The position numbers and the translations under genes are program-made. A DNA stretch of 64,000 nt, taken from contig NC_023758.2 of the NCBI RefSeq assembly GCF_000499845.2, positions 19,420,034 to 19,484,033 on the forward strand, written 5' to 3'. Below are positions 9,416 to 64,000 of this stretch, one piece after another. How positions within the stretch are numbered: position 1 is the stretch's first letter; every line of letters begins with the position of its first letter. This DNA is from Phaseolus vulgaris (Eukaryota > Streptophyta > Magnoliopsida > Fabales > Fabaceae). The notes beneath the pieces were generated by a model. It saw nothing but the letters and a program-made list of their open reading frames with translations. It was not told where the DNA came from and made no database searches.

Positions 9416-9420
9416 AAGAG

Positions 9421-10036: not shown

Positions 10037-10040
10037 CAAA

Positions 10041-10481: not shown

Positions 10482-10599
10482 CAAGCCACCCAGTCTCGAG
10501 CGGTAACTTGTTCGGCGAAGAGAATAAGTTCTCGCCTTTGGCGACCTACGTGAATAGCGCGCCGAAGTGACGCCTCTCTGAGCCTGTTTTAACTGCGCA

Positions 10600-10692
10600 C
10601 ACGTGTTTTGAACAACGACCAAGACTTAACGTCGCTTGTGCTTCTTAGTTTACATTAAGTATTCAAAAACGCGCGCTTCCAATCACTGTTCC
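10600..10692 (+). promoter_or_regulatory. Promoter-like block of the antisense gene, element A
   Basis: In order on the plus strand: G-box CACGTG at 10,600-10,605, TATTCAAA at 10,660-10,667 followed by a GCGCGC block, and CACTGTTCC at 10,684-10,692. The TATTCAAA-to-CACTGTTCC distance is 24 bases, fitting a TATA-to-start distance. The same three parts recur upstream of the antisense genes of elements B and C. Function is inferred from order and conservation. Confidence 0.4.
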
Positions 10693-14994: not shown

Positions 14995-15062
14995 CTTCTC
15001 GATCTTTCTGGTTCTTGCTGGTGGGACAATGTTTTGTATCGTGCCCCATGGTGGACGCCAAA

Positions 15063-28014: not shown

Positions 28015-28169
28015 TGATGTGAGTTGATTTTATGATTGATCATTTTTACGGTGACACTTTACTTAGATTTGGATTTTAGACAATTAGGGGTGATAACCTA
28101 AGAAAAATCCCCACTGGACATTAACTTAACCAAGTGGTTAAGTAGATGTGAAGGTTCATTTCACAAAGT
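28015..28169 (-). mobile_element. Solo LTR F, left part (minus orientation)
   Basis: The plus strand reads TGATGTGAGTTGATTTT..., the reverse complement of the end of the element E LTR (29,037 backwards), diverged. It is interrupted at 28,169 by element E and continues at 35,798. The outer ends are TG/CA, flanked by GGAAC at 28,010-28,014 and 36,605-36,609. Confidence 0.8.
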
Positions 28170-32375: not shown

Positions 32376-32542
32376 AGAGAAAACATTTTCCATATTAGAT
32401 GTCTCATTAATGATAAGTTGTGTTCTTTGATTATGGATGAGGGGAGTTGTCCGAATGTGGCAAGTACAAGAGTAGTAGATAAACTTGGATTGTCTACTAT
32501 CTTTCATGCAAAACCCTATAAGCTTAGATGAAGTATAGGCAT
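32376..32542 (+). pseudogene. Element E protease remnant and deletion junction
   Basis: A short protease start (LIMDEGSCPNV in place of D-S/T-G, then VDKLGLST and KPYKL) is joined directly to the middle of RT. Protease C-terminus and RT N-terminus are deleted. The junction carries AAGTATAGGCAT twice (32,531-32,542 and 32,550-32,561). Confidence 0.7.
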
Positions 32543-38494: not shown

Positions 38495-39684
38495 TGATCC
38501 GATCGGTCATCGGTAGTCGATGACGTCAGCAGCAGAGGACCACGTGGACCACTCGCAGGGTGACACGTGGACCAAGTGACAGAGAGATCAAGGAGACGAT
38601 CGCCAAGAGCGGTGATCGGGGGTCAGTAACCAAGTGACCATCGACAGATCAGGAGGCAGAGAGGTCAGGGGACAGATCACCCAGAACGGTGATCGGAGGT
38701 CAGTAGCCAAGTGGCCACCAACCGACCAGTTCCCAGACTCACGCCTGGGGGTAGAACGCGAGAAGTAAATGGAGCACTGATCAGTCATCGGGTGCATTGT
38801 CATCGAGGTCTCGTGTTACACGCAGTTAAACTGGGATTGAGGTTCCCAGCGAGAGCGTTACGCATGAACCTCGCATGAGCACATCCCAGGGAATCATGCA
38901 CGAGAGTGGCCTGAGGGAACTAGTAAACCAGTCAGTGATTGGTGATTCCCTAAACCCATTACGTGCGTGACACCGTGTAGGGTAAGCCGTTTACGCAGGG
39001 AGCAACGTCTGGTGAGTGTGCCTAGACCAGCCACACCTGGCGTTCTCCTGAGAGTATGCGATTTACCCAGATGGAAGAAATATCCTAAGTTACTCCGCAA
39101 GGGAGTAACTTAGGCACACAAGAGAAGCGCTAGAGCCCTTCCAGTAAGTGACACGTGTGTGGTTAGATGTGAGTCGCATGCCTCCACGTGTCATCATCTG
39201 AGAGGGGTGCGGTCCAGATAAAGGTGCACTCCGTACCGCTAAAGGTACAGACAAGCGCAGCCAAGCGCAGAGACGCGCGAACACGCACAGACACCCACAC
39301 TCTACTGATTCTGAAGGTACATTGTCTCAGAAAAGCATAACAGGGTTCTGACACATGCCAGAAAAGCATAACAGAATTCTATTATGCCCAGAAGCAGAGA
39401 GAGAGACATAGAAAGAGAATCAGGGAGAGATTGAGGGGATACGAAAATTAGAGAGCAAGAGTTTTTCATACACACTGCTAGTTTTCTCATTTGGTGGTTC
39501 TGTGGTCTAACTTGATCGACGGAGTGCAAACGGTCGCTAGAGGCGCCGTCTGTGTGTTTTGCAGGTCACGTTTGGAGCATTAAGAGAAGGTTCTGAGGGT
39601 GACTTTGCAGAGAACGCAGTCGCGTAGACGGGACAGAGAGCGCTAGGAAGCGATTCCTCCACGTTCGAGTTGCCGGCAGGATCA
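38495..39684 (+). repeat. Element B 5' LTR
   Basis: 1190 bases. It contains a 31-base direct repeat (38,610-38,640 and 38,687-38,717, 28 of 31 equal) and several CACGTG/ACGTGG G-box cores (near 38,551, 39,150 and 39,186). No plain TATA box was found; GATAAAGG near 39,218 is only a possibility. Confidence 0.95.
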
Positions 39685-39686
39685 TT

Positions 39687-39704
39687 TGGCGCCCACCGTG
39701 GGGC
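39687..39704 (+). other. Element B primer binding site
   Basis: TGGCGCCCACCGTGGGGC, two bases after the 5' LTR. The same site follows the LTRs of element C and of the short element at 7059. The first seven bases fit the 3' end of plant tRNA-Asp; I cannot assign the primer tRNA firmly. Confidence 0.7.
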
Positions 39705-39781
39705 CCGAGTGAATCGTGGTCCCATATACACCACAGTATTGAAGCTTACCAGAGTTTTACCAACTTCTTTGATAGGAAAAT

Positions 39782-41099
39782 ATGCCAAGAAATAGACAAC
39801 CATCACCTGCGCCATCTGCTGACGAAGGAGCTGTGACAATGGCGCAGGTCCTGGAGATGGTGCGTACGCTGCAGGATAATGCCGCAGCGTCAAAAGCTGA
39901 ACAAGAAAGGATGCAGACGGAGTTGGCCGCGTCGCAAAGCAAGAACGACGAGCTGAATCGCGTCAATGAAGAGTTGAGGAGGACGTTGCAGGCGCAGAGG
40001 GAACACGTGGTTGACGAAAGGATGTCTAGGCAGCCGTCACCTCCAAGAGCGTTCCCCATGCCATTCTCCCCTGAAATCATGGGAACCATGGTGCCTCCCA
40101 ACCTGGTGGGGGTGAAGGCGTCGTTCAAGGGGGTAGAAGACCCGAAGGCACATCTGACGACGTTCCACACCCAGATGATGTTGTCCGGGGGCTCGGATGC
40201 TGTGTACTGCAAAATGTTCATGAGCACGTTAAGCGGAATCGCCATGGAGTGGTTCGTGAGCTTACCAGAAGGGCATATCACGTATTTCTCTCAGTTTTCA
40301 AAGCTCTTCACTGAGCAATACATCGTCAACAAAGCACCTGCAGTGGTGTCATACTTTTGTTCGACGTGCGTCAGTACCAAGGTGAGTCGCTGAAAGACTA
40401 CCTCAACGGCTTTGGAGCACAAGTGGTTAGACTGCCCAGCAAAGATGAAGATATGCTGGTGCACGCGTTTAAGAAGGGAGTGCTGTCTGGCCCCTTCAGC
40501 GAGTCTCTCATCAGGAGCCATCCCAGCACCTTTGCAGAGATCCGGCGACGCGCGGTGGCGCACATAGTGGCAGAAACAGAGGTTTCTGAGAAGAGAGGAA
40601 GTGCTGCACCACAAAGACCGCGTGGAGGGCAAGGGAAATCGCAGCAAGCAAGGGTGCATGAGGCCAAGGAGGGGAAAAAGGTGCGGGAAAAACCTCGTCC
40701 CTATGCACCAGGCAAAGATCAGAGCAGGGGGAACAATGTGCCCCCAAGATACAATTTCATGGTGGGATTGGCGGATCTCATCGCCCTTCCTGCTGTAGCA
40801 GCAAGACTACGCGTACCGGAGAAAACTGATAAGGTACTTGGTAGAAAGAAGAATGAGTGGTGTGAGTTTCACCAGGCCTTTGGCCACACACTTCACTCCT
40901 GTTTGGCGTTGGGACACCAACTGGCAGAGCTGGTGAAGTCTGGGTTCCTAGCAGATTACCTGCGTGAGCCGCAGGGTGATCGCGCGTCGGGATCTCAGGC
41001 TGGAGAACAACAGCATGAAGTCCCTGTGCATGGGGAGGTGCAAACGATCGCGGGAGGCTTCTCTGGTGGGTATGCACAGCGTCACAGAGAAGGAGGTAC
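39782..41099 (+). pseudogene. Element B gag
   Basis: Starts MPRNRQPSPAP. Coiled coil at about residues 20-75 (AQVLEMVRTLQ, NEELRRTLQ), capsid from SFKGVEDPKAHLTTFHTQMM through MEWFVSLPEGHIT and YQGESLKDYLNGFGAQVV, then a basic linker (KPRPYAPGK) and a CEFHQAFGHTLHSC finger-like end. Two single-base losses shift the frame, near 40,353 and near 41,070. Element C stays in frame at both sites, which shows they are damage. Confidence 0.85.
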
Positions 41100-41714
41100 G
41101 CCCGGTCGGTTATGGCGGTAGACGCGATAAATGAGAGCCATTACCCTGAAGTAGATATTATCTTCAGGAAAGTTGATCTACGGGACGTTGTCCCACACGA
41201 CAACGACCCTGTGGTCATTTCCCTCATCACAGCAGGAAGACGAGTGCACAGAGTACTCGTAGATCAAGGAAGCTCGACAGACGTCATGTTCTGGCCAACG
41301 TTCAACAAGTTGCAGATGTCCCCTGATCAGCTGAGGCCGTATACCGGGTGTCTCTACGGTTTTGCAGGAGATCAGGTAGAGGTGAGGGGATACATTGAGC
41401 TGAGGACAACGTTCACTGACGGAACGACAGCCCGCACTGAAAGGATAAAGTACCTAGTGGTGAACGCCCCTTCTGCGTACAACATTTTGTTGGGGAGGCC
41501 AACACTCAATAGGTTGGGCGCAATACCATCAACGAGGCACATGAAGTTGAAACTGCCGTCGATGGAGGGAACCGTGATAACCATCAAGTCGGATCAGGCT
41601 GAGGCAAGACGCTGTTATGAGAACAGCCTGAAGCAGAAGAGAAGTGTATGTCACGTCACCACGAAACCACCACCAGGTGTGCGCGAAGAGCGATCGGTGG
41701 TTAGGGAGACATAG
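41100..41714 (+). pseudogene. Element B protease
   Basis: Retropepsin-like domain with active site VDQGSSTDVMFW, then LRPYTGCLYGFAGDQVEVRG, TTFTDG, YLVVNAPSAYNILLGRP and MKLKLPSMEGTVITI. The domain is open; the stop at 41,712 (TAG) separates it from pol in the same frame. Confidence 0.88.
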
Positions 41715-41726
41715 GGCGCTCAGAGG

Positions 41727-44700
41727 ATGGAGGACGCTGCGGTGGGGGGCTTCCAGGTAGCTCAAGTTGAAGAAGAAGAGGAGGGCGCTATCGCACCTCG
41801 CGAGTCAGGGATCGCGAGGGCGGTCATCGCCAGCGAGAGAAGGCCCCACCCAGCTGAAGGATGGGTCGAAGTGGACATCGGGGGGAAAAAGTTCAAGTTG
41901 GGGGGATCCCTCGTTGAAGAAGAGCGAAAGCTGATCGTTGGTGTGATCGAAAAGCACATGGGTGCCTTTGCATGGTCAGCGTCCGACATGCCAGGAATCG
42001 ACCCTGATTTCCTTTGCCATCGTCTGTCGATGGATCCGAAGGTTCGACCTGTGCGACAAAGACGAAGGAAATTCAACGAGGAAAAGAGAAAGGTGATCCA
42101 CGACGAAGCGCAGAAGCTCCTTGCTGCAGGGCATATCAGAGAGATCCAGTACCCCGAGTGGCTAGCGAATGTGGTACTGGTTCAGAAGGCAAGCGGCAAG
42201 TGGAGGATGTGCGTGGACTTCACTGACCTCAACAAGGCGTGCCCCAAGGATTCTTACCCTTTACCCAGTATAGATGCCCTAGTTGATAGCGCATCAGGGG
42301 GAAAGCTACTCAGCTTTTTGGATGCCTTTTCAGGGTATAACCAGATCAGGATGCACCCCATGGATGAGTGCAAGACCGCGTTTATGACGGAACGGTCTTG
42401 CTATTGCTACAAGGTCATGCCATTCGGGCTAAAGAACGCGGGGGCCACCTACCAGCGGCTCATGGATAGGGTACTCTCGCCCATGCTGGGAAGGAATGTA
42501 CATGCATATGTAGATGACATGGTGGTTACGTCCCAAGAGAAGAAGCACCATGCAGCTGATCTGGAAGAACTACTCACCACCATTGCCAAGTACAGGCTGA
42601 AGCTCAACCCTGAGAAGTGTATTTTCGGTGTGGAGGCTGGGAAGTTCTTGGGTTTCCTCTTAACAGAGCAGGGAATCGAAGCTAACCCAGAGAAGTGCGC
42701 AGCAATCATGGCAATGAGGAGCCCAACGACGGTGAAGGAAGTGCAGCAGCTCACCGGTCGCTTGGCAGCCTTGTCCCGGTTTATGTCCGCTGGAGGGGAG
42801 AAAGGTCATCCATACTTCCAGTGTCTCAAACGCAACAGCAGATTCCTTTGGACACAGGAGTGCGAGGAGGCCTTCATCAAACTGAAGGAGTATCTGGCGA
42901 GCCCACCAGTCTTGCGAAAACCTCAGGTAGGCATCCCTCTTCGTCTATATTTCGCTGTGACGGAGAGAGCAGTCAGCTCAGTCCTGGTGCAAGAGCAAGA
43001 CCAGACCCAGAGGCCTGTTTACTTTGTGAGTAAGGTGCTGCAAGGCCCTGAAACAAGGTACCAGGCCCTCGAGAAGGCTGCCCTGGCGGTGGTGTTTTCA
43101 GCCAGAAGACTCAGGCATTACTTCCACAGCTTCACAGTGGTGGTGATGACTGATCTGCCTATCCAAAACGTGCTGAAGAAACCTGATGTAGCAGGCAGGA
43201 TGGTCAAGTGGGCGGTGGAATTGTCAGAGTTTGACATTCAGTACGAGCCCCGAGGATCGATCAAGGGGCAGGTGTTCGCGGAATTTGTGGTCGAGCTGTC
43301 ATCGATCGCGACACCTGCAGAAGGTTTAGGTTTCCGATGGGTGTTATCGGTGGACGGTTCCTCTAATCAGCAGGGGAGTGGCGCTGGAGTCATTTTGGAA
43401 GGCCCAAACGGGGTACTGATCGAGCAGTCCCTCCGCTTTGCCTTCAAGGCCAACAACAATCAGGCGGAGTACGAAGCCCTGATCGCAGGAATGTTGCTGG
43501 CAAGAGAAATGGGAGCAAGAAACCTGTTGGCCAAAAGCGACTCTTTGCTGGTCACGGGGTAGGTTACAGGGGAGTTCCAGGCAAAGGATCCCCAGATGGC
43601 AGCCTACCTGGAGTATGTACTGCTCCTGAAGACGTCCTTCACCGAGTTTGAATTGGTACACGTGCCAAGAGAGCAAAATGCCAGAGCAGACCTGCTTGCC
43701 AAGCTAGCCAGCTCAGGCAAAGGGGGGAAGCAGAGGACCGTCATTCAGGAGACCTTGAAGGTACCGCGTGCGTTCGTGTCAGACAACCAGGTACTTCATG
43801 TATACAAATCAATGGAGCGCCTGACGATCGGTCATCGGTCGTTGACCCAAGAAACGCTGAGAGCACCGAGGGTGAGATCGCGACCGTCGAAGACCGATGA
43901 GTCGATGGAGGTCCGCGCGGAGAAGGAACCCGACACCTGGATAACGCCATACCAGTTATACTTAGAAGATGGTGTACTCCCACTCGACGTGGCAGAGGCA
44001 AAAAGGATAAAGAGGAGTTCAAGTAAGTTTACTCTAATAGATGGAAACCTCTTTAGATTTGGATTTTCTCACCCTGTGCAGATCTGTGTGCACGACGAGC
44101 AATGCACCAGACTCATGTCTGAGCTGCACGAGGGGGTGTGCGGAAGCCACGTAGGTGGTCGCGCTTTGGCAAGTAGGATACTCCGTGCGGAGTACTACTG
44201 GCCAAAGCTGAAGGAAGACTGCGTAAGGTTTGCTCAGCGCTGCAAACAGTGTCAACTGCACGCAGACTGGCACAAGGCACCTCTTGAGGAGTTGAGGTCC
44301 ATCCATAGCCCGTGGCCATTCCACACATGGGGGATCGACATCCTAGGACCTTTTCCCCTGGCGATAAGGCAGATGAAGTTTCTCATTGTGGCCATCGAGT
44401 ACTTCACCAAGTGGGTGAAGGCAGAACCAGTCGCACACATCACCGCACAGAAAGTCGAGCACTTCGTCTGGAAGAACATCGTCTGCCGCTTCGGAATACC
44501 CAAGAGGTTGGTCTCCTGCAATGGCACCCAGTTCACGAGTCATCAGCTGAGGAAGATGTGTGAGGAGTTAAAGATACAACAGGTTTTCGCTTCAGTGGAA
44601 CACCCACAAACCAATGGGCAGGTGGAGTCGGCCAATTGAGTACTGCTCAGGGGGCTGAAGCGAAGACTAGACAAGGCTAAAGGAAGCTGGGCAGAGGAGG

Positions 44701-45164
44701 TCCCCAGAATCGTATGGTCTTATCATACCACCCACCAGTCCAACACCCATGAGACACCCTTCAGCCTTGTCTATGGGACAGACGCCATGATTCCCGTGGA
44801 AATACAGGAGAGCTCCCCCAGATTCTTGAATTTCATTGCTGAAGAGTCCAATGAAGAACGAAAGGTGAATCTCGACCTGCTGGACGAAGTGCAGGAGGAA
44901 GCCAGAGTCAGTGCTGAAGCCGTAAAGAGAAGAGTAGAGCGGAGGCACAACTCTAAGGTGAGGCCCAGGCGTTTCCAGGAAGGTGATCTGGTGATGAGAA
45001 AGGCGCATCAGAATGAGATAGAGAACAAGTTGTCCCCAAAGTGGACAGGCCCGTACAGAGTGGTCGAGACGTTGGAGAATGGAGCCTATCGCCTAGAGAC
45101 TTTGGAGGGAGGAGCAATCCCCAGAACGTGGAATGCCACCCATTTAAAATTTTATTTCAGTTAA
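41727..45164 (+). pseudogene. Element B pol: RT, RNase H, second RNase H, integrase
   Basis: One frame broken by two stops, 43,560 (TAG) and 44,637 (TGA). RT lies at about 42,050-42,750 with YVDD at 42,507-42,518. The first RNase H is about 42,930-43,290 (LRLYFAVTERAVSSVL). A second, archaeal-type RNase H is about 43,330-43,720 (VDGSSNQQGSGAGVIL, NNQAEYEAL, AKSDSLLV, NARADLLAKL), the mark of the Tat lineage. The integrase zinc finger (HEGVCGSH ... CKQCQ) is at 44,120-44,260; the core has D in GIDILGPF and E in GQVESAN, but the second Asp is Cys (TGC at 44,517-44,519). The C-terminal GPY-type end is at 45,035-45,164; no chromodomain is present. In element C the first stop site reads CAA and the second CGA. 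Confidence 0.92.
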
Positions 45165-46124
45165 AGTTGTACAGTAGTTGCGTTCTCGCGCTAAAAGATA
45201 CATGCTTTGTATGTGGTGGAAACAGTTGAACAGACAAGGGGGCACTCTTTTCCCTAAGGAGGGTTTTTAACGAGGCCACCCAATTAAAGAAAAATTTCCA
45301 GCATATCAAGTGTGCGCAAGTATTAAAATCCTCCTTGCCCCAGGCGCAAGCGCAGGTAATAGGTTAGGCCTTACTCTCCCTATGCGCAAGTACTGGCACT
45401 GATCTAAGTCTTCCTCATCCCAGGTGTGAGCGCAGGCAGCTAAGGGTTTGAAAAGCCAGGGGTGTTAGTAAAACCAAGAGAGGGAAAGGAAAGATTCTGG
45501 CAAGTGTCCTTACCCACTTGGCATACACCAATATTGGCCCAGTAAGACTCTTAGCCCGAAACCCTTCTCACCCAGGAGTGAGGCAGGAGATGAACGACTC
45601 AATCCGCCGAAGGGTGATGACCTTGGGGAAAGTAAGAGGGGTTAGCGAGAAACACTTTTCTTTCCCCAAAACGAGGCATCACCTCGAGCGATCGATGTCA
45701 AAGTCCTCTATGCACTCAGCGCTAGAGCGACAGAGTAGCCAAGTAAAGATCGAAGAACGATCACTGATGAGTCGTCAGTGATTGGTTAGTGGCGCAAAGC
45801 AGCGCACGAGAACTGTTAAACATAAAGCTAAGGGAGTAGCTAGTCGTGATCAAGTAGAGGCCAAGATCAAAGGAGGCAGATCGCGCTAGGCCCAAGCTGG
45901 TTAACACCTAGTCGTGTGCAAAGGGAAAGATAAAGCTTAAGATCACGCTGAACCTAAGCTAGCTAACAGTTAGTCGTGTGCATAAAGAAAGGTGAAGCTC
46001 AAGAAAAATACAAGAGAAGAAGCTTATACAAATTGAGAGTATGTATTCACAACCAAGTCTTATACAAATTCTGAGTACTAGGAAAAGTTGTGCAGAAGTA
46101 AAAATTTACAAGAAAGAGAAGAGA
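45165..46124 (+). repeat. Element B repeat zone between pol and antisense gene
   Basis: Noncoding. Degenerate units include CAGGCGCAAGCGCAGG-like pieces (45,345, 45,420) and three units of about 62-72 bases beginning TAGTCGTG (45,839, 45,910, 45,972) with AGCTNGNTAACA. It differs in sequence from the repeat zones of elements A and C. Confidence 0.65.
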
Positions 46125-48658
46125 TCAAGGGGCAGGAGGGGTGAGCTTTCCATCTACCACTTCGTGATAAATGCTGAATTGCGAGAGGTCCAGGTCTGGG
46201 AGAACGCAGCGGATTTGCTCGAGTGCCAGCTCGAATCCGTTAGTAAGGGCATCAGCACCCACGTTCATCAAATCAGCTTTCTCCGCCTCCAGTTTTTGCT
46301 TTGAGGCCTCCGCAGCATTTCTCTCAGTGGTAATGGCAGCAAGGGAGGAGGCAACTTCTTCCAGTTGGCCCTTGGCTTCAGACAGTTTGCCCACCACCTC
46401 CTCAAGTTTTTTCTCTCCAGCAGCAGCCGCTTCTTTGGTGGACTCGAGCTCCCCCACTAGTTGAGAGTTCAGTTGGCGTAGGGAGGAGGTCTCGGCCCGT
46501 AGCTCCACCACCGCGCAGTCCAGAGAGCTAACAGTCTGCCCCATCAAGATCTCCGTCTTGATGGTCTCTTGGACCTGCGCTAGGTACTCCCTCCTAGCTT
46601 TTTCCACCATGCCCCGCATCAGCTCTACAGACCCTTGAGCAGCTTCGAAGTCACTTCGCAGTGACTCCTTGTCGTGCTCAAGCTCCTTCACCCTCTTCTC
46701 CAGGGCTATTTGCTTGCGGTGCTGGGTGGAAAACTCCAAAGAGAGCACCATCTGCCTGGCCAGGTGCATGTCCACCTCATCACCGTTCCATTCGACGAGC
46801 TCCCGGTTGCTAATGAGTTGTCGAACCAAGGTGATGACCCTGCTAAAGTTCTCGTGGCTGGCTCCAGAGGCGCTTGGGCGCGAGCTGGATCCACCACATT
46901 CAGCAGGTGCAGTGGGGATTGGCAGTGGTGGTGGGGACCCCCAGGTCGAGCAGAAGCACCCCCAGCAGGAGGAGCAGATGGACCAGGTGATTGGCCTGCT
47001 GGGGAGGGAGATGGCGGTTGAGAAGTTGGAGGCAACTGTTGGCAGGCAGAAGGAAGGCATGTGGGCTCTGGGGCAGGTTGAGTAGAGGGAGGAGGGGGTG
47101 AACCTTCCTCTACCTCCACCACCTCGATCTCCCCAGGCTGGAGAGACGAAGCCCCCTCAACCACTGGCAATTTCCTCTGGCGGTGTATAAGAGGAGAGCC
47201 AGAGCTTTCCTCTTCGGTTGAGGCAGCAGCAGCAGCAGTAGCAAGTGAAGTAGAAGCCTTAACCAGTCTTTTTCTTTTCCTTCCTTGCTCGGGGCCTTCA
47301 GCTGGCGCGACCGAGAGAGGAGGGGCTGCGATGGGCTCAGTGGTAGAAGAAGAGGAGCCAGTTCCCTTGGTTCCCCGAAGTTTGGCAAGCTCCAGCAAGG
47401 CTTGCCTCCTGTCTTTCCCCGACATTGAATCTACATAGATGAGAAAAGGAAGAGTTAGTTGGCCAAGTTATGCAAGTAAGTCAAAATATATAAAAGCATG
47501 CATGAGAAGGTGCAAGTATCCTAAGAGGTGGAAGAAGAGCTACCTATGTACTTTTTCAGGGCCAACACATCGAACTCATCTTTGATGAGGCGAGCAGAGT
47601 TGTACTTGGCCCCCAGGAACAGCCCACATAGCTCGCGCTCGTAGGGGGCCATGGCTTCGAGGTCCCTGGGTTTCTTGAATTCAACCCCAGGAACCCAGTA
47701 GAGGGGGTACCCCTCGAGCAGATTTGGACTTTGTGGGGTGGCAGATATCATGTAGAACCTGCCCTTCCAGTTTTTGAAGGATTGCTGGTATAGGCCCAGG
47801 AGCACCCGTCCAGCAACCCCGTTCAGGCTAACCCAGGACCTGTCCCCAGGATTCTTCGCCTCGAAGAAGTAGAGGAACACATCCACGGAGGCGTTGTGCC
47901 CGAAGTAATTGCAGAGGATCTGAAATGCCCGGATGAAGGCCCAGGCATTGGGATGGAGTTGGCAGGGCGCGACGTTCAACTCCATCATCAGCTCCTTTTC
48001 GAAAAAGGTGAAGGGGAGGCGCAGCTTCAACCTTTTGAAGATGGCGGAGTAGATGAAGACGAAGGGCACCCCATTGGTGGCCCTATCGTTCGCACAGATG
48101 GGCACCCCTCGAGGAGGGATGCGGACTTGGATGTTGAAGTCGTTTTCCCTGTCTATGGCGCACGAAGGTTCATCCGGGTCATGGCTCAGAAGGGAAGTGA
48201 GGTGACCCTGCGGTAGTAGGGTGGATGTTTCGGCCAGCAACGCCAGGGGGGCCCAGTCGTAGACCCTGGCGTTGTCATGGTAGGAGGTGGCAACAGGTGG
48301 TGGTGGAGCTGGCGCACTCGCGGAAGGCTGTGCACCAGAGGATGAGGCAATAATGCACGCGGTTTGTTTCAAGCGAGCCATCGCGAGATAGCTGCAAATG
48401 GAGGAAAAACGAAAGGTCAGAATGAATGGAAGAAGAGGGAATGATGAATGGTTCGGTGAAAACAGAGAAGGGAAAGGAGAAAGAGATGCCCAACTGAAAA
48501 AAGGAAGAAGGAGAAGCAGAAATCAGGGCAAGAGCGCGAAAAACCCTAGCGCGGGTCGAGAGAGGGAAAACAGGGGAAATGAATGCATGATAACGAGAAA
48601 GGTAAATGCAATCGGTAGAAATAACCTAAATAGACCCAGGAAGAAGAAAAACCATACC
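46125..48658 (-). pseudogene. Antisense gene of Tat element B
   Basis: Runs opposite to gag-pol. A leader intron (48,657-48,392, CAAAG/GTATGG to TTGCAG) precedes the ATG at 48,381. Coding exon 1 (48,381-47,544) is fully open: LHPNAWAFIRAFQIL, VDVFLYFFEAKNPG, GVAGRVLLGLYQQSFK, EGYPLYWVPG and ERELCGLFLG, matching 'putative gypsy type transposon'. A coding intron of 113 bases (47,543-47,431) has clean GT/AG and a pyrimidine tract. Exon 2 (47,430-46,125) encodes KDRRQALLELAK, a low-complexity Pro/Ser region, then a coiled coil (RVKELEHDKESLRSDFEAAQ onward) and the end YHEVVDGKLTPPAP. One frame change near 46,950 separates the Pro-rich part from the coiled coil. It is the least damaged copy of the three. 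Confidence 0.82.
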
Positions 48659-48760
48659 TTTGGATGATCGCAAGAGGTTTGGAAGCAGAAAACTTGAAGA
48701 AAGATGGGCGCGCAGAGAAAGAGTTCGCAAGAAGTCTGAGAGTCGATTGAAGAAGATGAA

Positions 48761-48839
48761 GGAACAGTGAAGGCGCGCGCCAATTTGAATAAGAGAAGCG
48801 CTAGCGACACACCACGCTGGCCGTCGATGGGGCCACGTG
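48761..48839 (-). promoter_or_regulatory. Promoter-like block of the antisense gene, element B
   Basis: Minus strand: CACGTG at 48,839-48,834, TATTCAAA at 48,791-48,784, a GCGCGCGCC block, and CACTGTTCC at 48,769-48,761, 22 bases after TATTCAAA. Three further CACGTG cores lie upstream within 80 bases (near 48,880, 48,893 and 48,915). Leader donor at 48,657. Confidence 0.42.
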
Positions 48840-48973
48840 TCGCGAGATTAAGGAAGGAAGTCCAAACGTTAAAGAAGCAACACGTGAGGTGGCACGTGAT
48901 GCGGTCCCACTTGCCACGTGGACTGAGGGCACGACCACTTAGTCTCTTCGCCGAGAACGAGTTCACGACTCGA

Positions 48974-48987
48974 GACAGGGGGGCTTG
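48974..48987 (+). other. Element B polypurine tract
   Basis: GACAGGGGGGCTTG directly before the 3' LTR, the expected second-strand primer. Element C has GACTAGGGGGCTTG at the same place. Confidence 0.8.
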
Positions 48988-50177
48988 TGATCCGATCGGT
49001 CATCGGTAGTCGATGACGTTAGCAGCAGAGGACCACGTGGACCACTCGCAGGGTGACACGTGGACCAAGTGACAGAGAGATCAAGGAGACGATCGCCAAG
49101 AGCGGTGATCGGGGGTCAGTAACCAAGTGACCATCGACAGATCAGGAGGCAGAGAGGTCAGGGGACAGATCACCCAGAACGGTGATCGGAGGTCAGTAGC
49201 CAAGTGGCCACCAACCGACCAGTTCCCAGACTCACGCCTGGGGGCAGAACGCGAGAAGTAAATGGAGCACTGATCAGTCATCGGGTGCATTGTCATCGGG
49301 GTCTCGTGTTACATGCAGTTAAACTGGGATTGAGGTTCCCAGCGAGAGCGTTACGCATGAACCTCGCATGAGCACATCCCAGGGAATCATGCACGAGAGT
49401 GGCCTGAGGGAACTAGTAAACCAGTCAGTAATTGGTGATTCCCTCAACCCATTACGTGCGTGACACCGTGTAGGGTAAGCCGTTTACGCAGGGAGCAACG
49501 TCTGGTGAGTGTGCCTAGACCAGCCACACCTGGCGTTCTCTTGAGAGTATGCGATTTACCCAGATGGAAGAAATATCCTAAGTTACTCCGCAAGGGAGTA
49601 ACTTAGGCACACAAGAGAAGCGCTAGAGCCCTTCCAGTAAGTGACACGTGTGTGGTTAGATGTGAGTCGCATGCCTCCACGTGTCATCATCTGAGAGGGG
49701 TGCGGTCCAGATAAAGGTGCACTCCGTACCGCTAAAGATATAGACAAGCGCAGCCAAGCGCAGAGACGCGCGAACACGCACAGACACCCACACTCTACTG
49801 ATTCTGAAGGTACATTGTCTCAGAAAAGCATAACAGGGTTCTGACACATGCCAGAAAAGCATAACAGAATTCTATTATGCCCAGAAGCAGAGAGAGAGAC
49901 ATAAAAAGAGAATCAGGGAGAGATTGAGGGAATACGAAAATTAGAGAGCAAGAGTTTTTCACACACACTGCTAGTTTTCTCATTTGGTGGTTCTGTGGTC
50001 TAACTTGATCGACGGAGTGCAAACGGTCGCTAGAGGCGCCGTCTGTGTGTTTTGCAGGTCACGTTTGGAGCATTAAGAGAAGGTTCTGAGGGTGACTTTG
50101 CAGAGAACGCAGTCGCGTAGACGGGACAGAGAGCGCTAGGAAGCGATTCCTCCACGTTCGAGTTGCCGGCAAGATCA
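48988..50177 (+). repeat. Element B 3' LTR
   Basis: 1190 bases, 13 differences from the 5' LTR counted by eye, 12 of them transitions. Confidence 0.95.
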
Positions 50178-53877: not shown

Positions 53878-54749
53878 TGTCCCGACCAGTCCTCGCTCAT
53901 CGACTCAAGGACTGACCTTAGACATTGTGTACTGATGCTTGGTAATGGAAGGGGGCCACGTAAGTTAGTGCCGAGACGCACCTATCAGGGGATTGGTTAG
54001 TCTTCGGACATTGGTATCATAGACCCCGATGTTGGAGATCGACATCGGACCTTGCCAACAGAGGGAGAAGATCGGACATCGGTGGTGTGAACGTTGTAGA
54101 GGGCCACGTAAGGTGGGCCGTAGAGTTATGATAAGTTAAAAGTTAAGACATGAGATATGTGGGAAGCCTAAGTCACGAAGGATCCATGCACGCGATGTGT
54201 ATAGCGCATGAAGGCGCAACACGTATGAATAATCCTGGGAGGTGCTAAGGCCCATTAGGGTTAGGGTTTTCAAGAAAAGTTGCATGCATGGCACGTGAAT
54301 ACTTAGGGCACCCACAAAGCAGATGACGCTAGAGATCAGGTGCACAAGTTGGTACCCAAGCGACCACTCTGTTATTCACTGCACTCCAGTTAAGGGAAGT
54401 TCATGTGCCAGATACACTACGATTATGCAAATAGCGGCGCAAGGACGTTTCCTAAGGAACCCTAGATGAGAGCAACAACACCAAGGTAAACCCTAGCTTC
54501 AACCTATATAAAGGGTGCCAAGAACCTTAGCAAGGTACACAGTTTCTAAGACTGAAGCTAATATACACTCCTGGTGTTTGTTTGCCCTAATACTGACTTG
54601 AGCATCGGAGTGCAAACGGCCGCTAGGGCGCCCCTTTACTTTGCAGGTGAGAGGTTTCTTGATCAAGGACGTTCGATTCTCAGACGGAGATAGAAGGGTC
54701 AAAGCAGTTGTTGGAGTTAACCGGCGAAGCGAGTCAACCGGTAGGAACA
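53878..54749 (+). repeat. Element C 5' LTR
   Basis: 872 bases, TGTCCCGACC...GGAACA. TATATAAA at 54,505-54,512. The shared Tat motif CTTGAGCATCGGAGTGCAAA lies at 54,597-54,616, followed by a splice-donor-like TTTGCAG/GTGAG at about 54,641. Confidence 0.92.
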
Positions 54750-54751
54750 TT

Positions 54752-54769
54752 TGGCGCCCACCGTGGGGC
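54752..54769 (+). other. Element C primer binding site
   Basis: TGGCGCCCACCGTGGGGC, identical to that of element B, two bases after the LTR. Confidence 0.7.
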
Positions 54770-54821
54770 CCATTAAAGAAAGGTCCCACTCGCAATCACG
54801 TTAGGAGTCTTTACCAATAAT

Positions 54822-56099
54822 ATGAGGAGTACGAGGCAAGGAACTGCTGAACCCACGGGGGTTGTGCCCCCCGGAGGGGACAGCGTTACCACGCAGCAAA
54901 TCTTGGAGACAATGCGTGCCCTCCAAGAAGAAGTGGCGGCATCTAGGGTTGAAATTTCCGCATCACGAGCGGACAACGCGGAACTGCGCAGAGCCAATGA
55001 AGAACTGCGCAAGGATTTGCAACAAGTAGGGGAGCGCGCGACGGACGAACTTGCCCCACCTGTACCACTCAAGGCACGTCCCATGCTGTTTTCTCAGGCA
55101 ATCAAGGACACAGCGTTGCCAACCACGTCTCTGGGCCCCAAGATCTCCTTCAAAGGAGTGGAGGACCCAGAGGCCAATCTCACGGCGTTCCACACTCAGA
55201 TGATGCTTACAGGAGGATCTGACATTGTGTACTGCAAGTTGCTTATGAGCACGTTCGTAAGCGCGGCGTTGGAGTGGTTCATTAACCTTCCCGATGGACA
55301 CATCACCACCTTTGACCAGTTCGCAACGCTGCTCAGGGAGCAATACCTTGTTAACAAGGCCCCCATCTAGCTTTCTTATGATGTCTTTGACATTAAATAG
55401 TACCAGGGGGAGTCCATGAAGGACTACTTGAATAGGTTTGGGGTCTAAGTGGTGAGGTTGAAACCCACTGATGAGGTCATGACAATGCATGCCTTTGTCA
55501 AGGGAATGTTGCCAGGACCTTTCAGCGAATCGCTGTTTAGGTTCTACCAGAAGACGTTCATTGAGATCAAACGTCGAGCATTGGCACACATCGATGCAGA
55601 TGATCGAGTAACAGAGAAACAAGGTCTTGTCGATCCTATCCGACCTCGAGTGGCAGCACGACCTCAACCCATGAGGGTGCACGAGGCGACCACAGAGAAA
55701 AAGGGACCAGGAAAACCCTACGAACGGACCCATGCGGGAACGCGCGCGCGAAGGGACCCGCCCCCAAAGCATAATTTTCGATTGGAGCTCAAGGAGTTAA
55801 TCGTTATCCCAAACATAGCGGCAAGACTGAAGGTGCCTGCAAAGACCGACAAGAAGATGGGGCCCAACAAGAGCGCTTGGTGTGAGTTTCACCAAGCGAA
55901 TGACCACTACATACGCAATTGGTTGGCCCTGGCACACCAACTAGATGAACTAGTGAAGAATCGCATAACGATCAAGCGTTGGTGACTATAGGGGCGGACC
56001 ACGGGCACGAGGTGCCCATTCATGGGGAAATCAACACCATCGCTGGAGGATTCTCAGGAGGAGGATGCTCCGCCTCCCAACGAAAGAAGTACGCGCGAG
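54822..56099 (+). pseudogene. Element C gag
   Basis: Starts MRSTRQGTAEP. Coiled coil (QQILETMRALQEEVAASR, NEELRKDLQ), capsid SFKGVEDPEANLTAFHTQMM, LEWFINLPDGHIT, YQGESMKDYLNRFG, KGMLPGPFSESL, then NFRLELKELIVI and CEFHQANDHYI. Stops at 55,368 (TAG), 55,398 (TAG) and 55,446 (TAA); a frame change with a small deletion near 55,975. Confidence 0.85.
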
Positions 56100-56794
56100 A
56101 GGTAAATGAAGTAGAAGTGCAGCAGGTAGATCAGACTCCCGATGTCGACCTCGTCTTCACCAAGGCCGACCTTCAGGATGTCATACCCCATGACAATGAC
56201 CCAGTAGTGATTTTGCTAGTCACAGCTGGGAGGAAGGTGCATCGCGTCCTCGTGGATCAAGGAAGTTCAACCGACATAATGTTCTGGACGACCTTCAACA
56301 AGTTACAACTCTCCCCATACTAGTTAAGACCCTACACTGGATGCTTGTATGGTTTCGTCGGAGATCAGGTGGAGGTGCGTGGGCATATTGAGTTGAGGAC
56401 GACCTTCACGGATGGCACGACTTCACGCACTACCAACATTAGGTATCTCGTTGTTAATGCTTCGTCGGCCTACAATATACTTCTAGGTAGACCAGCTTTA
56501 AATAGGATTGAAGCAGTTGCCTCCACGAGGCATATGAAGATGAAGTTGCCTTCCATCGAGGGTACGGTGATCACCATTAAGTCTGACCAAAAGGAGGCTA
56601 AGAAGTGCTATGAAAATAGTCTCAAGACAAAGAGAGGGGTGTTCGCATTTACGACCCAGCCTCCAAGGGAAGAAGGGATCACCCGTTCAGAGATCGCCCG
56701 GGAGAAACGACTCGAACCCGCCGGAGACGTAGTGGAAAGAGAGATTGCTGGGAAGATGTTCAAGCTTGGCCGATCTTTGAGCCAAGAGTCGTAG
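56100..56794 (+). pseudogene. Element C protease
   Basis: VDQGSSTDIMFWTTFNKLQ, YGFVGDQVEVRGHIEL, YLVVNASSAYNILLGRP and MKMKLPSIEGTVITI. A TAG at 56,321 sits where element B has CAG. The block ends at a TAG (56,792) before RT, at a different place from the stop of element B. Confidence 0.87.
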
Positions 56795-58180
56795 GATCAG
56801 GTAGCTGAGGTCATAGCACGACACCTTGACGTTTTCGCGTGGTTTGCCTCTGACATGCCCGACATAGACCCTGACTTCCTATGTCACCATCTCACCATGG
56901 ACCCCTAGGTCCGACCTGTTTGCCAGAGAAGGTGAAAATTCAATGAAGAGAGGCGTCGGGTCGTACGCGAAGAGACGAAGAAGCTGTTGAAGGTTGGCCA
57001 CATTAAGGAGATTCAATACCCCAAATGGCTGGCCAATGTGGTATTAGTAAAGAAGGCCAACGGCAAATGGAGAATGTGTGTTGACTTCACGGACCTCAAC
57101 AAGGCCTGTTTGAAGGACTCCTACCCGCTGCCCAGTATTGTTGCCTTGGTGGACAGCGCCTCTGCATGCAGACTCCTCAGCTTCCTGGATGCCTTTTCTG
57201 GTTACAACTAGATCATGATGCACCCCAGGAACGAGTGCAAGACAGCGTTTATGACAGAGTTGTCTTGTTATTGCTACAAGGTAATGCCCTTTGGGCTAAA
57301 AAACGCAGGTGCCACCTACCAACGGTTGATGGACAGAGTATTAACGCCCATGTTAGGGCGAAATGTCCAAGCATACGTAGACGACATGGTGGTCACCTCC
57401 CAGCAGAAGGAGCGACATGTAGCTGACCTTAAATAGTTGTTCACCACGATAATAAAGTACATGTTGAAGCTAAACCCAGAGAAGTGTGTGTTCGGGGTTG
57501 AGGCAGGCAAGTTCTTGGGTTTCCTACTCACTGAATGTGCGATAGAGGCAAATCTCGAGAAGTGCACCGCGATAATAGCCATAAGGAGCCCGATCTCGGT
57601 GAAAGAGGTGCAACAATTGACAGGGCGCATGGCTGCTGTGTCTAGATTCGTACCGGTAGGAGGAGACATGGGGCACCCTTACTTCCAGTTCCTAAAGAGA
57701 AACAACAGGTTCGTGTGGACCCAGGAGTGCGAAGAGGCGTTTGTGAAGCTGAAGGAGTACTTGGCCAGTCCACCAGTGTTGTGCAAGCTAGAGTCAGGTA
57801 CCCCACTCCGCCTATACTTCGCAGTCACAAAGAAGGTGATCAGTTCAGTCCTATTACAAGAGCAATACCAGGTGCAGAGGTCGATCTACTTCGTCGGCAA
57901 GGTGTTGCAAGGGCCAGATGTGAGATACCAGGCCTTAAAAAAGGCAGCCCTAGCAGTAGTATTCTCAGCGCGAAGACTTCGCCACTACTTCCAGAGCTTC
58001 ACCGTGATAGTGATGATAGACCTCCCAATCCGCAAGGTCTTACAAAAGCCAGATGTGGCAGGAAGGATGGTGCGGTGGGCAGTAGAGCTGTCTGAGTTTG
58101 ACGTACAGTATGAGCCTAGAGGCCCCATTAAGGGTCAGGTTTACGCTGACTTTGTAGTAGAGCTCTCTTCGGCAGCCACA
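56795..58180 (+). pseudogene. Element C reverse transcriptase and first RNase H
   Basis: RT: DIDPDFLCHHL, WLANVVLVKKANGKWRM, LPSIVALVDSAS, SFLDAFSGYN, VMPFGLKNAGATYQRLM, YVDDMVVTSQ (57,377). RNase H: LRLYFAVTKKVISSVL, RRLRHYFQSFTVIVM. Stops at 56,906, 56,933, 57,209 and 57,434; the 57,209 TAG is CAG in element B. Confidence 0.9.
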
Positions 58181-58600
58181 CACCAAGAAGGAGCAGGTTT
58201 CATATGGATGCTTTCTGTAGATGGTTCCTCAAACCAATAAAGAAGTGGAGTTGGTGTCATCTTGGAAGGACCAGATGGGCTGCTGATTAAGCAGACCCTA
58301 CAGTTTGCTTTCAAGGCCAGTAACAACCAAGCAAAGTATAAGGCCCTGGTCGCTGGAATGTTGTTGGCCAAGGAGAGGGGAGCAAAAGGTTTGCTTGCAA
58401 AGAGTGACTCTTTGTTAGTCACAAGTCAAGTCACGGGGGAGTACCAAGCTAAAGACCCTCAGATAGCCGCATACCTAGAATACGTCCAAATCCTAAAGGA
58501 GTCATTCGAGGTCTTTAAGTTAGTCCACGTACCCAGAAAACAGAATGCCCGAGCCGACTTGCTTGCAAAGCTCGCCAGTTTGGGCAAGGGGGGCAGGTAG
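58181..58600 (+). pseudogene. Element C second RNase H
   Basis: MLSVDGSSNQ, GVILEGPDGLL, NNQAKYKALVAGML (the usual catalytic Glu of QAEYEAL is Lys), AKSDSLLVTSQ and NARADLLAKL. TAA at 58,238 and TAG at 58,598. Confidence 0.85.
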
Positions 58601-60016
58601 AGGATAGTGATTCAGGAGACCCTGAAGACACCTCGAAATACCACAGACAATGTGGCAGAAGTCCAACAGGTTAGCACATTGGAAGGGATAAGGAGGAGTC
58701 ATCGGTCGTTAACATAGGAGACGGTGAAAACGCCCAGAATAAGCATGTACCCGGTTGCATGGGAGATATCGTCCCAAATTCACCAAGTTGAATCAGGAGA
58801 AACTTGGATGACGCCCTACCAACACTATTTGGCTGATGAAGTACTCCCGCAGAAGCTCGAAAAATCAAGAAAAATTCAAGCAAGTACACCCTGATCGATG
58901 GAAAGTTGTTCAGGCATGGATTCACCCATCCTATCCTGGTATGTGTAAGTGGTGAACAATGCACGCGCATCATGGCAGAACTACATGAAGGGATATGCGG
59001 TAGCCACATCGGCGACCGATCTCTCTCATCAAAGGCCATTCGGGGAGGGTATTACTAGCCAACCATGAGGGAGGATTGCACGAGGTACGCTTAGCGGTGC
59101 AAGCAGTGCCAACAACATACTGATTGGCACAAGGAGCCTCCAGATGAGCTGAGGTCGATCTACAGCCCATGGCCATTTCATACCTGGGGGATCAACATTT
59201 TGGGACCCTTCCCTTTGGCAGTACGACATATGAAGTACCTCATGTTTGCCATAGAATATTTCACAAAGTGGATTGAGGCTAAGCCAGTGGCATAGATCAC
59301 AACCCATAAGGTCCAGCACTTCGTGTGGAAGAACATAGTGTGCCGCTTTGGAATTCCGAAGAGGTTGGTATCTGACAACGGTACCTAGTTTGCAAGCCAG
59401 TAGCTGGGAAAGCTACGTACAAAACTTGGAATAAAACAGGTGTTCGTGTCAGTAGAACACCCCCAGACGAACGGGCAGGTCGAGTCGGCCAACCGAGTTC
59501 TGCTGAGAGATCTGAAGAGAAGGCTAGACAAAGCCAAAGGGACCTGGGCGGAAGAAGTTCCTAAAATTGTGTGGGCCTACCACACTACCCCCAGTCCACA
59601 ACTAGGGAAACACCCTTCAGCTTGGTGTATGGTTCGGACGCCATGATTCCAGTAGAGATCCAAGAGAACTCGTCACGTTTCCAAAACTCTGTGGTCGAGG
59701 AGTCCAATGAAGAGAGAAAGGTAAACCTGGACCTACTAGATGAAGTAAGGGAGGAAGCAAGGATTAAGGCCGAATCTTTGAAAAGGAGGGTGGAGTATAA
59801 GTACAACTCCAAGCTGAGACCGCGGCAATTCCAGGTCGCCGACCTGGTAATGCGGAAGGCCCACCTGTACCAGTTGGAAAATAAGTTATCAAGTGGACAG
59901 ACCCTTTCAGAGTAACAGAGGCCCTTGGGAATGGAGCATACAGGCTCGAAATGTTAGAGGGTGGCGTGATCCCTCGTACTTGGAACGCGACCAATCTGAT
60001 GTTTTATTTTAGTTAA
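58601..60016 (+). pseudogene. Element C integrase
   Basis: Zinc region HEGICGSHIG ... CKQCQ; the core has first Asp changed to Asn (AAC at 59,194-59,196 in WGINILGPF), second Asp kept (SDNGT, 59,374) and Glu kept (GQVESAN, 59,482). Stops at 58,715, 59,056 (TGG to TAG), 59,092, 59,293, 59,386 and 59,401; shifts near 58,850, 59,590 and 59,890. C-terminal end IPRTWNATNLMFYFS. Confidence 0.88.
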
Positions 60017-60976
60017 AAATATTTTGCATTGTACACGTTTTAAGGGGGGCACTCTTTTTCCCTCATAAGGGTTTTTTAACGAGGTCACCCAAATAAAATT
60101 CTAGTTATTCAGTTAAGAAATATGTGTGCATTACAGTTAATGAACCTCTCCCTTGAAGTGATACACGAAGAGCAGAGATAGTTTGGTTTCCCCAATAAGC
60201 CCCTCTTGTGTAAGTTCACCAAGCCGAAGAATAGTATGGTTCCCCAGTTAATGAACCTCTCCCTTGAAGTAATACGCCAAGGTCGGGAATAATATGGTTC
60301 GATGATGAACCTCCCCCTTGTGCAAGTTTACCAAGACTGAGAACAGTATGGTTCAAACGTTGAAGGCTTGCCCCTTGACTTTTTATACAAGGTCGCGGTC
60401 AGTTATTCAAACCTGTCCCTTGACTTCGTACAACAAGGATGAGGTCGCTAAAGAGCCGTTCACTCGAGGTAGAAACACCAAGATGGGAGAAGTATGGTTC
60501 CTTAAGGGACCTCCTTCTTGCGTAGTAACTCCAGGGTCGAACAGCATAGCTCACCAGTTAAGTTCACCCCTACCTTTGTATTGCAGGACCAAGATCAGAA
60601 GGAAATGCTTCCCCCTTGTATACAAGCCAAGGTTGAAAGCGGTACGTTCCCCAGTATTACCTGCAAGACGTTCCTGTCGGTCTAAGGAGAGTAAATATGA
60701 GATTAACAAAGACGCCACACTTTGCAAAAGAAAATCGAGGGCAGCAAGAGGAGCTCACCCTCGAACAGAGGTCAAGCCAGTTAAGGGGTTTGTGCGCAAG
60801 GTTCAAACGTGCCACCTAAAGGGTGAACCTAGGTCGAAGGTGCTGTTAATAGAAGTTGAGGCAAGTAAAGGTAGAAAAACGCAAGCTAATCGAGCAGTTA
60901 AACAAAAGATAAATATTTATAATGTATATATACAAAATGCAGATTGTCCTTCAAGAAGACAGAGTTACAGAATAAA
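60017..60976 (+). repeat. Element C repeat zone
   Basis: Degenerate tandem units of about 50-60 bases built on GAACCTCTCCCTTG and AGTATGGTTC (for example 60,144, 60,254, 60,306, 60,410 and 60,605). Apparent frames here carry no domain. It lies between pol and the antisense gene. Confidence 0.7.
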
Positions 60977-63271: not shown

Positions 63272-63356
63272 GGGAAAGCGTAAGAGTTAAAGGGTTTGAA
63301 CAGTGCACTAAGAAGTTCGAGCGCCAACAAATCTCAGTCGTTGATCTTGACACGTG
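63263..63356 (-). promoter_or_regulatory. Promoter-like block of the antisense gene, element C
   Basis: Minus strand: CACGTG at 63,356-63,351, TGTTCAAA at 63,302-63,295 and CATTGTTCC at 63,271-63,263. Same order as in elements A and B, with more drift. Confidence 0.35.
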
Positions 63357-63480
63357 TACGCTGATTAACAAAGTAAGGTGAGACGTCGCTTAGGTGTACT
63401 ATTCACGCCCGTTGCCCAACGCCACGTAGGTCGCCCATCGCGATAACTTAGTCTCTTCGCTGAAACAAGTTACAGCTCGA

Positions 63481-63494
63481 GACTAGGGGGCTTG
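63481..63494 (+). other. Element C polypurine tract
   Basis: GACTAGGGGGCTTG directly before the 3' LTR; one base is changed from a pure purine core, as expected for an old element. Confidence 0.7.
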
Positions 63495-64000
63495 TGTCTC
63501 GACCACTCCTTGGTCATCGACTCAGGGAATGACCTCAGACATCGCACACAGATGCTTGGTAATGGAAGGAGGCCACATAAGGGAGGCCCCAGACGCACCT
63601 ACCAGGGGATTGGTTAGTCTTCAGACATTGGTATCATAGACCCCGATGTCGGAGATCGACATCGGACCTCGCCAGCAGAGGGAGAAGATCGGACATCGGT
63701 GGTGTGAACGTTGTAGAGGGCCACGTAAGGTGGGCCCTAGAGTTATGATAAGTTAATAGTTAAGACATGAGATATGTGGGAAGCCTAAGTCACGAAGGAT
63801 CCATGCACGTGATGTGTATAGCGCATGAAGGCGCAACACGTATGAATAATCCTGGGAGGTGCTAAGGCCCATTAGGGTTAGGGTTTTCAAGAAAAGTTGC
63901 ATGCATGGCACGTGAATACTTAGGGCACCCACAAAGCAGATGACGCTAGAGATCAGGTGCACAAGTTGGTACCCAAGCGACCACTCTGTTATTCATTGCA
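63495..64000 (+). repeat. Element C 3' LTR, first 506 bases
   Basis: Homologous to 53,878-54,383. The first 103 bases differ at about 19 places, the next 400 at about 9. Cut by the window end. Confidence 0.92.

What the first reader, a model, noticed from the sequence alone, without database searches (positions are those of the whole stretch)
46125..48987. A spliced gene on the opposite strand is kept at the same place in three different Tat elements
Elements A, B and C each carry, between pol and the 3' LTR, a minus-sense gene with a leader intron, one coding exon with a 'putative gypsy type transposon' domain, a short intron after the K-Y-I codons, and a coiled-coil exon. Donor and acceptor sequences and the phase-1 position agree in B and C and nearly in A. 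Extra antisense frames in Tat elements are known; conserved splicing with a separate untranslated leader exon suggests a selected, separately expressed protein.
Basis: partly seen in the sequence, partly recalled or inferred. Interest (0 to 1): 0.75.

Follow-up and report, generated by a model that had tools for sequence, protein, structure and literature searches.

The report
Spliced antisense gene in bean retrotransposons
A group of jumping genes in common bean carries, on the strand opposite to its own genes, a protein gene that appears to be interrupted by two introns and kept by natural selection, so two reading frames previously listed as separate are most likely two parts of one spliced gene.

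Summary
Elements A, B and C each carry, antisense between pol and the 3' LTR, a leader, an intron, a TRP28 (PF04195) exon, a short phase-1 intron and a coiled-coil exon. Introns are T-rich (42-48%, exons 20-27%) and poorly conserved; the blocks they separate are conserved.
In one family (14 copies) pN/pS is 0.11 in exon 2 and 0.25 in exon 3, but 0.61-0.70 in every frame of intron 2. CACGTG lies 150-320 nt upstream of the leader donor in 35 of 36 units (background 181 of 1948). Six P. vulgaris protein models are joined at the predicted junction.
Antisense TRP28 ORFs are known in Retand elements; I saw no report of this two-intron gene, but two key papers are not held. No RNA evidence was available; function is inferred.

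The parts
38495..50177 (+). Element B, Ty3/gypsy of Tat/Retand type, target-site duplication ATACC
   Evidence: LTR pair 38495-39684 / 48988-50177, 13 substitutions in 1190 nt; pol domain order RT, RNase H, RVT_3, integrase
48658..48987 (-). Antisense leader region of B next to the 3' LTR: four CACGTG boxes, TATTCAA, presumed start near 48770 (inferred)
48392..48657 (-). Intron 1 of B (266 nt, AAAG|GTATGG...TTTGCAG|)
   Evidence: same donor type
47544..48391 (-). Exon 2 of B: ATG at 48381, MARLKQTAC..., TRP28 domain, ends ...LKKYI
47431..47543 (-). Intron 2 of B (113 nt, phase 1)
   Evidence: join seen in six P. vulgaris protein models
46125..47430 (-). Exon 3 of B: linker, coiled coil, C-terminal VVDGK motif; coiled-coil part (46125-47060) out of phase with the junction in this copy
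53878..64000 (+). Element C (3' LTR cut by the window end)
61000..63494 (-). Antisense gene of C: leader 63494-63162, intron 1 63161-62949, exon 2 62948-62091, intron 2 62090-62005, exon 3 from 62004; broken
10482..12974 (+). Antisense gene of A (element A lies on the minus strand): leader 10482-10792, intron 1 10793-11015, exon 2 11016-11782, intron 2 11783-11920, exon 3 11921-12974; broken

Best explanation
An accessory gene of Retand-type elements, transcribed on the opposite strand from a promoter just inside the 3' LTR, with an untranslated leader exon and two introns. The mRNA encodes one protein: a short basic N-terminus, the TRP28 domain, a variable Pro/Ser-rich linker with basic patches, a coiled coil and a conserved C-terminal VVDGK motif. 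Because the element copies itself through sense-strand RNA, introns whose splice signals lie on the antisense strand are not removed during retrotransposition and persist. Shown here: gene anatomy, conserved splice sites and phase, purifying selection on both coding exons in one family, no clear codon signal in intron 2, a conserved CACGTG upstream. Inferred: that transcription and splicing occur, that the protein forms oligomers through the coiled coil, and that it acts in the nucleus as a regulator of the element, as proposed for maize Grande gene23 and by analogy to the spliced antisense genes of HTLVs.
For: Segment conservation and T content. Phase-1 NGT codon at the end of exon 2 in 36 of 38 distinct genomic loci with a junction and residues compatible with NGT in 65 of 67 unspliced relatives (G 57, S 7, C 1; Ser can also be TCN). 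In-phase AG 2 or 8 nt before the exon-3 ATG in 15 of 22 loci outside the K family; 21 of 22 have stops in the intron frame and 15 of 22 an intron length not divisible by three. Six P. vulgaris models (P0026, P0027, P0033-P0036) joined at that site. pN/pS 0.11 and 0.25 in exons, 0.61-0.70 in all frames of intron 2. Between A, B and C pN/pS 0.33-0.62 in exon 2 and 0.50-0.73 in exon 3, pol control 0.17-0.44. Intron-1 donor in 13 of 14 K copies and 15 of 17 other loci (background 189 of 1228). CACGTG in 35 of 36 units (background 181 of 1948). C-terminal motif in 22 of 168 sequences examined, many of which lack that end.
Against: No transcript evidence. All three window copies are broken. The six joined models are predictions with unknown support and could in principle come from intronless copies; the search for such copies did not complete. 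Loci were picked by TRP28 score, which favours an intact domain in exon 2 (not exon 3). Copies within a family are not independent. 2 of 38 loci lack the donor GT; 7 of 22 lack an AG at 2 or 8 nt, 6 of them have no in-phase AG within 40 nt. In 60-nt steps two exon-3 windows have third-position shares (0.43, 0.46) about the same as two of the three intron windows (0.42, 0.45). Exon 3 diverges fast between families (0.67-0.73 for B's coil part against C and A). A and C share intron-1 sequence above chance (z 7.5). The structure model was too weak to use (mean pLDDT 53).
Confidence: 0.85

Rival explanations
1. Two separate antisense ORFs (TRP28 and SMC-like/coiled coil) with a spacer between them, as ORF-finder surveys list them.
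For: Published surveys found them as ORFs with ORF Finder or getorf (PMC11963269, PMC6317226); many unspliced ORFs end in the spacer.
Against: A phase-1 GT at a fixed place (36 of 38), in-phase AGs (15 of 22), T-rich spacer, six joined models. An ORF ending by chance in a spacer needs no GT at a fixed codon phase.
Confidence: 0.08
2. Intron 2 is coding (a retained, exitron-like hydrophobic segment); one long ORF is the real product in some families.
For: In the K family the intron is 183 nt in 12 of 14 copies and its frame is open through to exon 3 in the 9 copies printed; several relatives read through (P0005, P0007, P0013, P0020); two of three 60-nt windows of the intron have third-position shares 0.42 and 0.45.
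Against: In K the differences by codon position in intron 2 are 509/495/627 and pN/pS is 0.61/0.70/0.68 in the three frames, against 0.11 and 0.25 in the flanking exons; two K copies have intron lengths 182 and 184 and at least L031 and L039 have stops in it; in 21 of 22 other loci the frame holds stops.
Confidence: 0.04
3. The antisense transcript works as RNA (double-stranded RNA, silencing trigger or regulator); the ORFs are relics.
For: Proposed as possible for antisense transcripts in general (PMC7264820); all window copies have broken frames.
Against: Strong third-position excess and low pN/pS in both coding exons of the K family; recurring start, splice phase and C-terminal motif. It may be true in addition.
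Confidence: 0.08

Closest known systems
Antisense TRP28 (Transposase_28, PF04195) ORFs of Retand elements (Vicient 2025, PMC11963269; text parts 1-3 of 5 read, plus a term search)
   Same: Orientation, place between pol and 3' LTR, TRP28 domain; 97% of clusters carry it; Smc-like domains in antisense ORFs of the same region
   Different: ORFs found with ORF Finder; the words intron and coiled do not occur in the text, splic only in the reference list; no spliced gene described in what I read
Antisense ORF2 of 15 common-bean Ty3-gypsy families (Gao 2014, PMC4093653; section 7 and passages read)
   Same: Same species, same orientation and place, some with SMC domain; pvRetro36 (11,784 bp, LTR 1,177) resembles B in size (11,683; 1,190)
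   Different: Predicted with FGENESH/GENSCAN, so introns may be implicit, but the word intron does not occur; no splice or selection analysis in what I read. Sequence not compared here
Maize Grande gene23 (via PMC7264820, parts 1-2 of 3 read plus a term search; original paper not held)
   Same: Antisense accessory gene near the 3' LTR, own promoter, nuclear protein
   Different: No splicing stated in what I read; sequence not compared
HTLV-1 HBZ and HTLV-2 APH-2 (PMC3185765, passages)
   Same: Spliced antisense gene read from the 3' end of a reverse-transcribing element, regulatory protein
   Different: HTLV transcripts start inside the 3' LTR and HBZ has a bZIP; here the leader lies next to the LTR, no bZIP was found, and no homology is claimed

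Membership tests
Retand lineage (Tat clade, Ty3/gypsy) | RT phylogeny groups with Retand | not tested
   No reference RT set was at hand
Retand lineage (Tat clade, Ty3/gypsy) | Second RNase H (aRH) between RNase H and integrase | tested here: met
   RVT_1, RT_RNaseH, RVT_3, then rve in B; criterion, shared with Ogre, from PMC6317226 (passages)
Retand lineage (Tat clade, Ty3/gypsy) | Antisense TRP28 ORF between pol and 3' LTR; pol-LTR region 2.9-6.6 kb; LTR 315-1194 bp | tested here: met
   PF04195 over cut-off; about 3.8 kb from 45164 to 48988; LTR 1190; ranges
Antisense accessory ORF (aORF-3R) | Present in many copies with conserved protein | tested here: met
   150 scored PF04195 matches of 9105 candidates in the genome, a lower bound; pN/pS 0.11/0.25 in one family
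Antisense accessory ORF (aORF-3R) | Transcribed from its own promoter | not testable with these tools
   Only sequence signals: CACGTG in 35 of 36 units
HTLV-type spliced antisense regulator | bZIP domain | tested here: not met
   Pfam finds only PF04195 over its cut-off in B's antisense exons; weak coiled-coil hits below cut-off
Exitron / coding retained intron | Coding constraint in intron 2 | tested here: not met
   No clear frame-specific signal in 14 copies; local third-position share up to 0.45
Histone H3 tail mimic | N-terminal A-R-T-K after Met | tested here: inconclusive
   ARTK in 19 of 59 N-termini by script, 21 if misplaced Mets of P0075 and P0080 are corrected; bean loci also AKTK; K family MTRAN

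The most novel reading that the evidence does not exclude
The protein's N-terminus mimics the histone H3 tail. Its commonest start among the relatives is M-A-R-T-K-T-T; four close relatives of B start M-A-R-L-K-Q-T-A-R (B itself ends that stretch in C); H3 is M-A-R-T-K-Q-T-A-R (recalled). If the Met is removed as in H3, a free A-R-T-K would be offered to readers or erasers of H3K4, tethered through TRP28 and a coiled coil, so that the element could steer chromatin at its own copies or its integration.
Probability: 0.12. Interest if true: 0.85.

Novelty: new variant of a known kind. Interest (0 to 1): 0.62.

Why it matters
It joins two ORF classes that surveys count by ORF finder (TRP28 and Smc/coiled coil) into one gene, so domain content, ORF counts and predicted proteins of this common plant element lineage may need re-reading with introns. 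It bears on the open question of origin: antisense introns argue against capture of a spliced sense mRNA and for capture as DNA or unspliced RNA. And it makes function testable, since the mRNA, start, promoter region and full protein can now be predicted and looked for in stranded RNA data.

Tried and rejected
PDB sequence search with the 122-sequence profile: 0 matches up to E 10. Plasmid collection (one protein) and viral contigs (alignment A2): no relatives. A GCGAAGAGA block seen in A, B and C was found near the donor in 0 of 33 other loci, so it is not a general part. A TATA box is not general: TATTCAA in A and B, TTCAAA in C and 5 of 33 loci. Two first looks for exon 3 gave little: a regex and a tblastn run with an option that, as I judge, was invalid (0 of 24); redone. 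Codon counts between A, B and C are near saturation at synonymous sites, so the weight rests on the K family. Papers: nine searches; in their listings and in the passages read I saw no report of introns in this antisense gene or of the H3-like start. A sunflower study with Retand among expressed elements reports splicing of element RNAs but has no word 'antisense' (PMC7730604, passages). Steinbauerova 2011 and Gomez-Orte 2013 are not held, so the claim of absence is limited.

Full report
What was checked. Element B spans 38495-50177, with LTRs of 1190 nt that differ at 13 places, 12 of them transitions, and a 5-bp target-site duplication ATACC. Its pol shows RT, RNase H, a second RNase H-like domain (RVT_3) and integrase in that order, the arrangement given for Ogre and Retand by Neumann 2019 (PMC6317226, passages). 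Its gag-pol is split over several frames. Elements C (53878 to beyond the window) and A (minus strand) are related.

Anatomy. On the strand opposite to gag-pol, between pol and the 3' LTR, each element has: a leader of 311-333 nt from the LTR edge to a donor AAAG|GTAYG; an intron of 213-266 nt; an exon with TRP28 (B and C over the Pfam cut-off; A by alignment to C); a phase-1 intron of 86-138 nt; and an exon with linker and coiled coil. Leader, exon 2 and exon 3 align with z 10-18, 19-23 and 4-23 above 60 mononucleotide shuffles; intron 2 with z 1.3-2.5; intron 1 with 1.6, 2.6 and, for A-C, 7.5; the stretch after exon 3 with 2.0-3.3. T content is 42-48% in introns and 20-27% in exons 2 and 3. 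As they stand none of the three copies is whole: B has a frame break before the coiled coil, C stops and a missing start, A stops and frame breaks.

Which genome. The own genome answered once: 537.7 Mb, 150 scored PF04195 matches of 9105 candidates. Contig lengths (51433939, 53580169, 48048378, 40923498, 63048260, 44302882, 49670989, 650110) equal those behind the Phaseolus vulgaris proteins, so the window is taken as common bean.

Intron 2. Of 166 fetched proteins, 73 hold the end of exon 2 by the pattern used; 6, all P. vulgaris models, are joined with Asp next (fits a codon G|AY), and 67 run into the intron with next residue Gly 57, Ser 7, Cys 1, Asp 1, Ala 1, so 65 of 67 are compatible with a codon NGT, the donor in phase 1 (Ser may also be TCN). 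In DNA, 47 loci of 3 kb or more were examined; a junction was found in 41, which are 38 distinct places; the codon is GGT 32, AGT 3, TGT 1, GAT 1, CTC 1, so 36 of 38 carry the GT. In the CTC locus (L032, a relative of B's family) the donor is missing. In 24 distinct loci outside the K family exon 3 could be located in 22; an in-phase AG lies 2 or 8 nt before its ATG in 15, in one more only 38 nt before, in none of 6; 21 of 22 have stops in the intron frame and 15 of 22 an intron length not divisible by three.

Selection. The K family (donor GGTAAGGG; 14 copies; pairwise synonymous difference about 0.14) has pN/pS 0.11 in exon 2 (13 copies, differences by codon position 425/296/1683) and 0.25 in exon 3 (1523/1272/3381). 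Intron 2 gives 509/495/627 and 0.61, 0.70, 0.68 in its three frames, although its frame is open through to exon 3 in the 9 copies printed; at least two other copies have stops in it. In 60-nt steps the third-position share is 0.50-0.71 in the last 240 nt of exon 2, 0.42, 0.45 and 0.33 in the intron, and 0.70, 0.58, 0.58, 0.43, 0.46 in the first 300 nt of exon 3 (12 copies). So over whole segments the codon signal is strong in the exons and weak in the intron, but single windows overlap and a slight third-position excess in the intron remains. Between A, B and C the exon-2 ratio is 0.33-0.62 and the exon-3 ratio 0.50-0.73, against 0.17-0.44 in pol; synonymous sites are near saturation there. 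Limits: pairwise counts are not independent, and loci were picked by TRP28 score.

Intron 1 and promoter. In 13 of 14 K copies an AAAG|GTAYG donor gives an intron of 211-212 nt up to the CAG before the start; in the other (L017) the start was not found. In 15 of 17 other loci with a start it lies 219-248 nt upstream of the ATG (background for the motif 189 of 1228 windows). CACGTG lies 150-320 nt upstream of the donor in 35 of 36 units: 32 of 33 fetched loci with a recognised donor, and A, B and C; five of the 38 loci had no recognised donor and were left out; background 181 of 1948 windows of the same loci. B alone has four, not reached in 500 shuffles. [quoted passage not shown] CACGTG is the G-box bound by bZIP and bHLH factors (recalled). 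TATTCAA 21-23 nt upstream of a TCACT start-like site is present in A and B only.

Protein. The basic N-terminus precedes TRP28; exon 3 ends in a conserved GF..AL.Q..C..P..D.S......VVDGK.VP motif (22 of 168 sequences examined, many being truncated). No solved relative was found, and the structure model was too weak to use.

Function. The sources read say that the Grande gene23 protein is nuclear and transcribed from a promoter upstream of gene23, and that TRP28 is predicted to bind DNA (PMC7264820, PMC11963269). With the coiled coil this fits a nuclear regulator of the element. HTLV-1 and HTLV-2 show that a spliced antisense regulator read from the 3' end exists in retroviruses (PMC3185765, passages). 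This is analogy, not homology.

Novelty. Antisense TRP28 ORFs in Retand are known, as are 15 common-bean families with an antisense ORF2 (PMC4093653, section 7). The 2025 and 2019 surveys used ORF finders. A 2025 review names Ogre and EVADE among notable exceptions to generally intron-free plant elements (PMC12786077, passages). Vicient and Casacuberta 2020 ask others to look for antisense and spliced transcripts. I saw no report of the two-intron gene in nine searches, but two key papers are not held.

Noticed in passing
48381-48350 (B), 11018-11050 (A); P0007, P0008, P0010, P0012, P0015, P0077-P0093 in part, L020, L025, L026, L029, L046: N-terminus resembles the histone H3 tail: MARTK in 19 of 59 N-termini by script; relatives of B MARLKQTAR; bean loci also MAKTK; other families differ.
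   Followed up: partly
L009, L010, L012-L018, L031, L034, L039, L043, L044: A family whose intron 2 is 183 nt in 12 of 14 copies and open in frame in the 9 copies printed, yet shows no clear codon signal.
   Followed up: yes
leader regions, e.g. 48839-48920 in B: CACGTG boxes at about 193-217 and/or 261-285 nt upstream of the intron-1 donor in most of the 36 units.
   Followed up: partly
9416-10446 and 14432-15473: Direct duplication (91%) holding gag-like sequence on either side of A's antisense gene; looks like two elements sharing an LTR, or a recombination product.
   Followed up: no
36955-38494 / 32540-34091: Sequence left of B matches the pol of another Ty3/gypsy element (66.5%); B seems inserted next to or into an older relative.
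   Followed up: no
28169-29037 and 34853-35792: Further LTR-like direct repeat pair around another gypsy-like element.
   Followed up: no
6076-6502 and 7055-7473: Tandem duplication, 82% identical.
   Followed up: no
4415-5656 minus: ORF of 413 aa that looks like a plant glucan endo-1,3-beta-glucosidase (recalled, not searched).
   Followed up: no
P0034: P. vulgaris protein model with the usual junction but, by eye, a different linker and coiled coil, suggesting exchange of exon 3 between families.
   Followed up: no
P0162 (Vigna angularis): A distant relative keeps the motif VVDGKLVP near its C-terminus.
   Followed up: no
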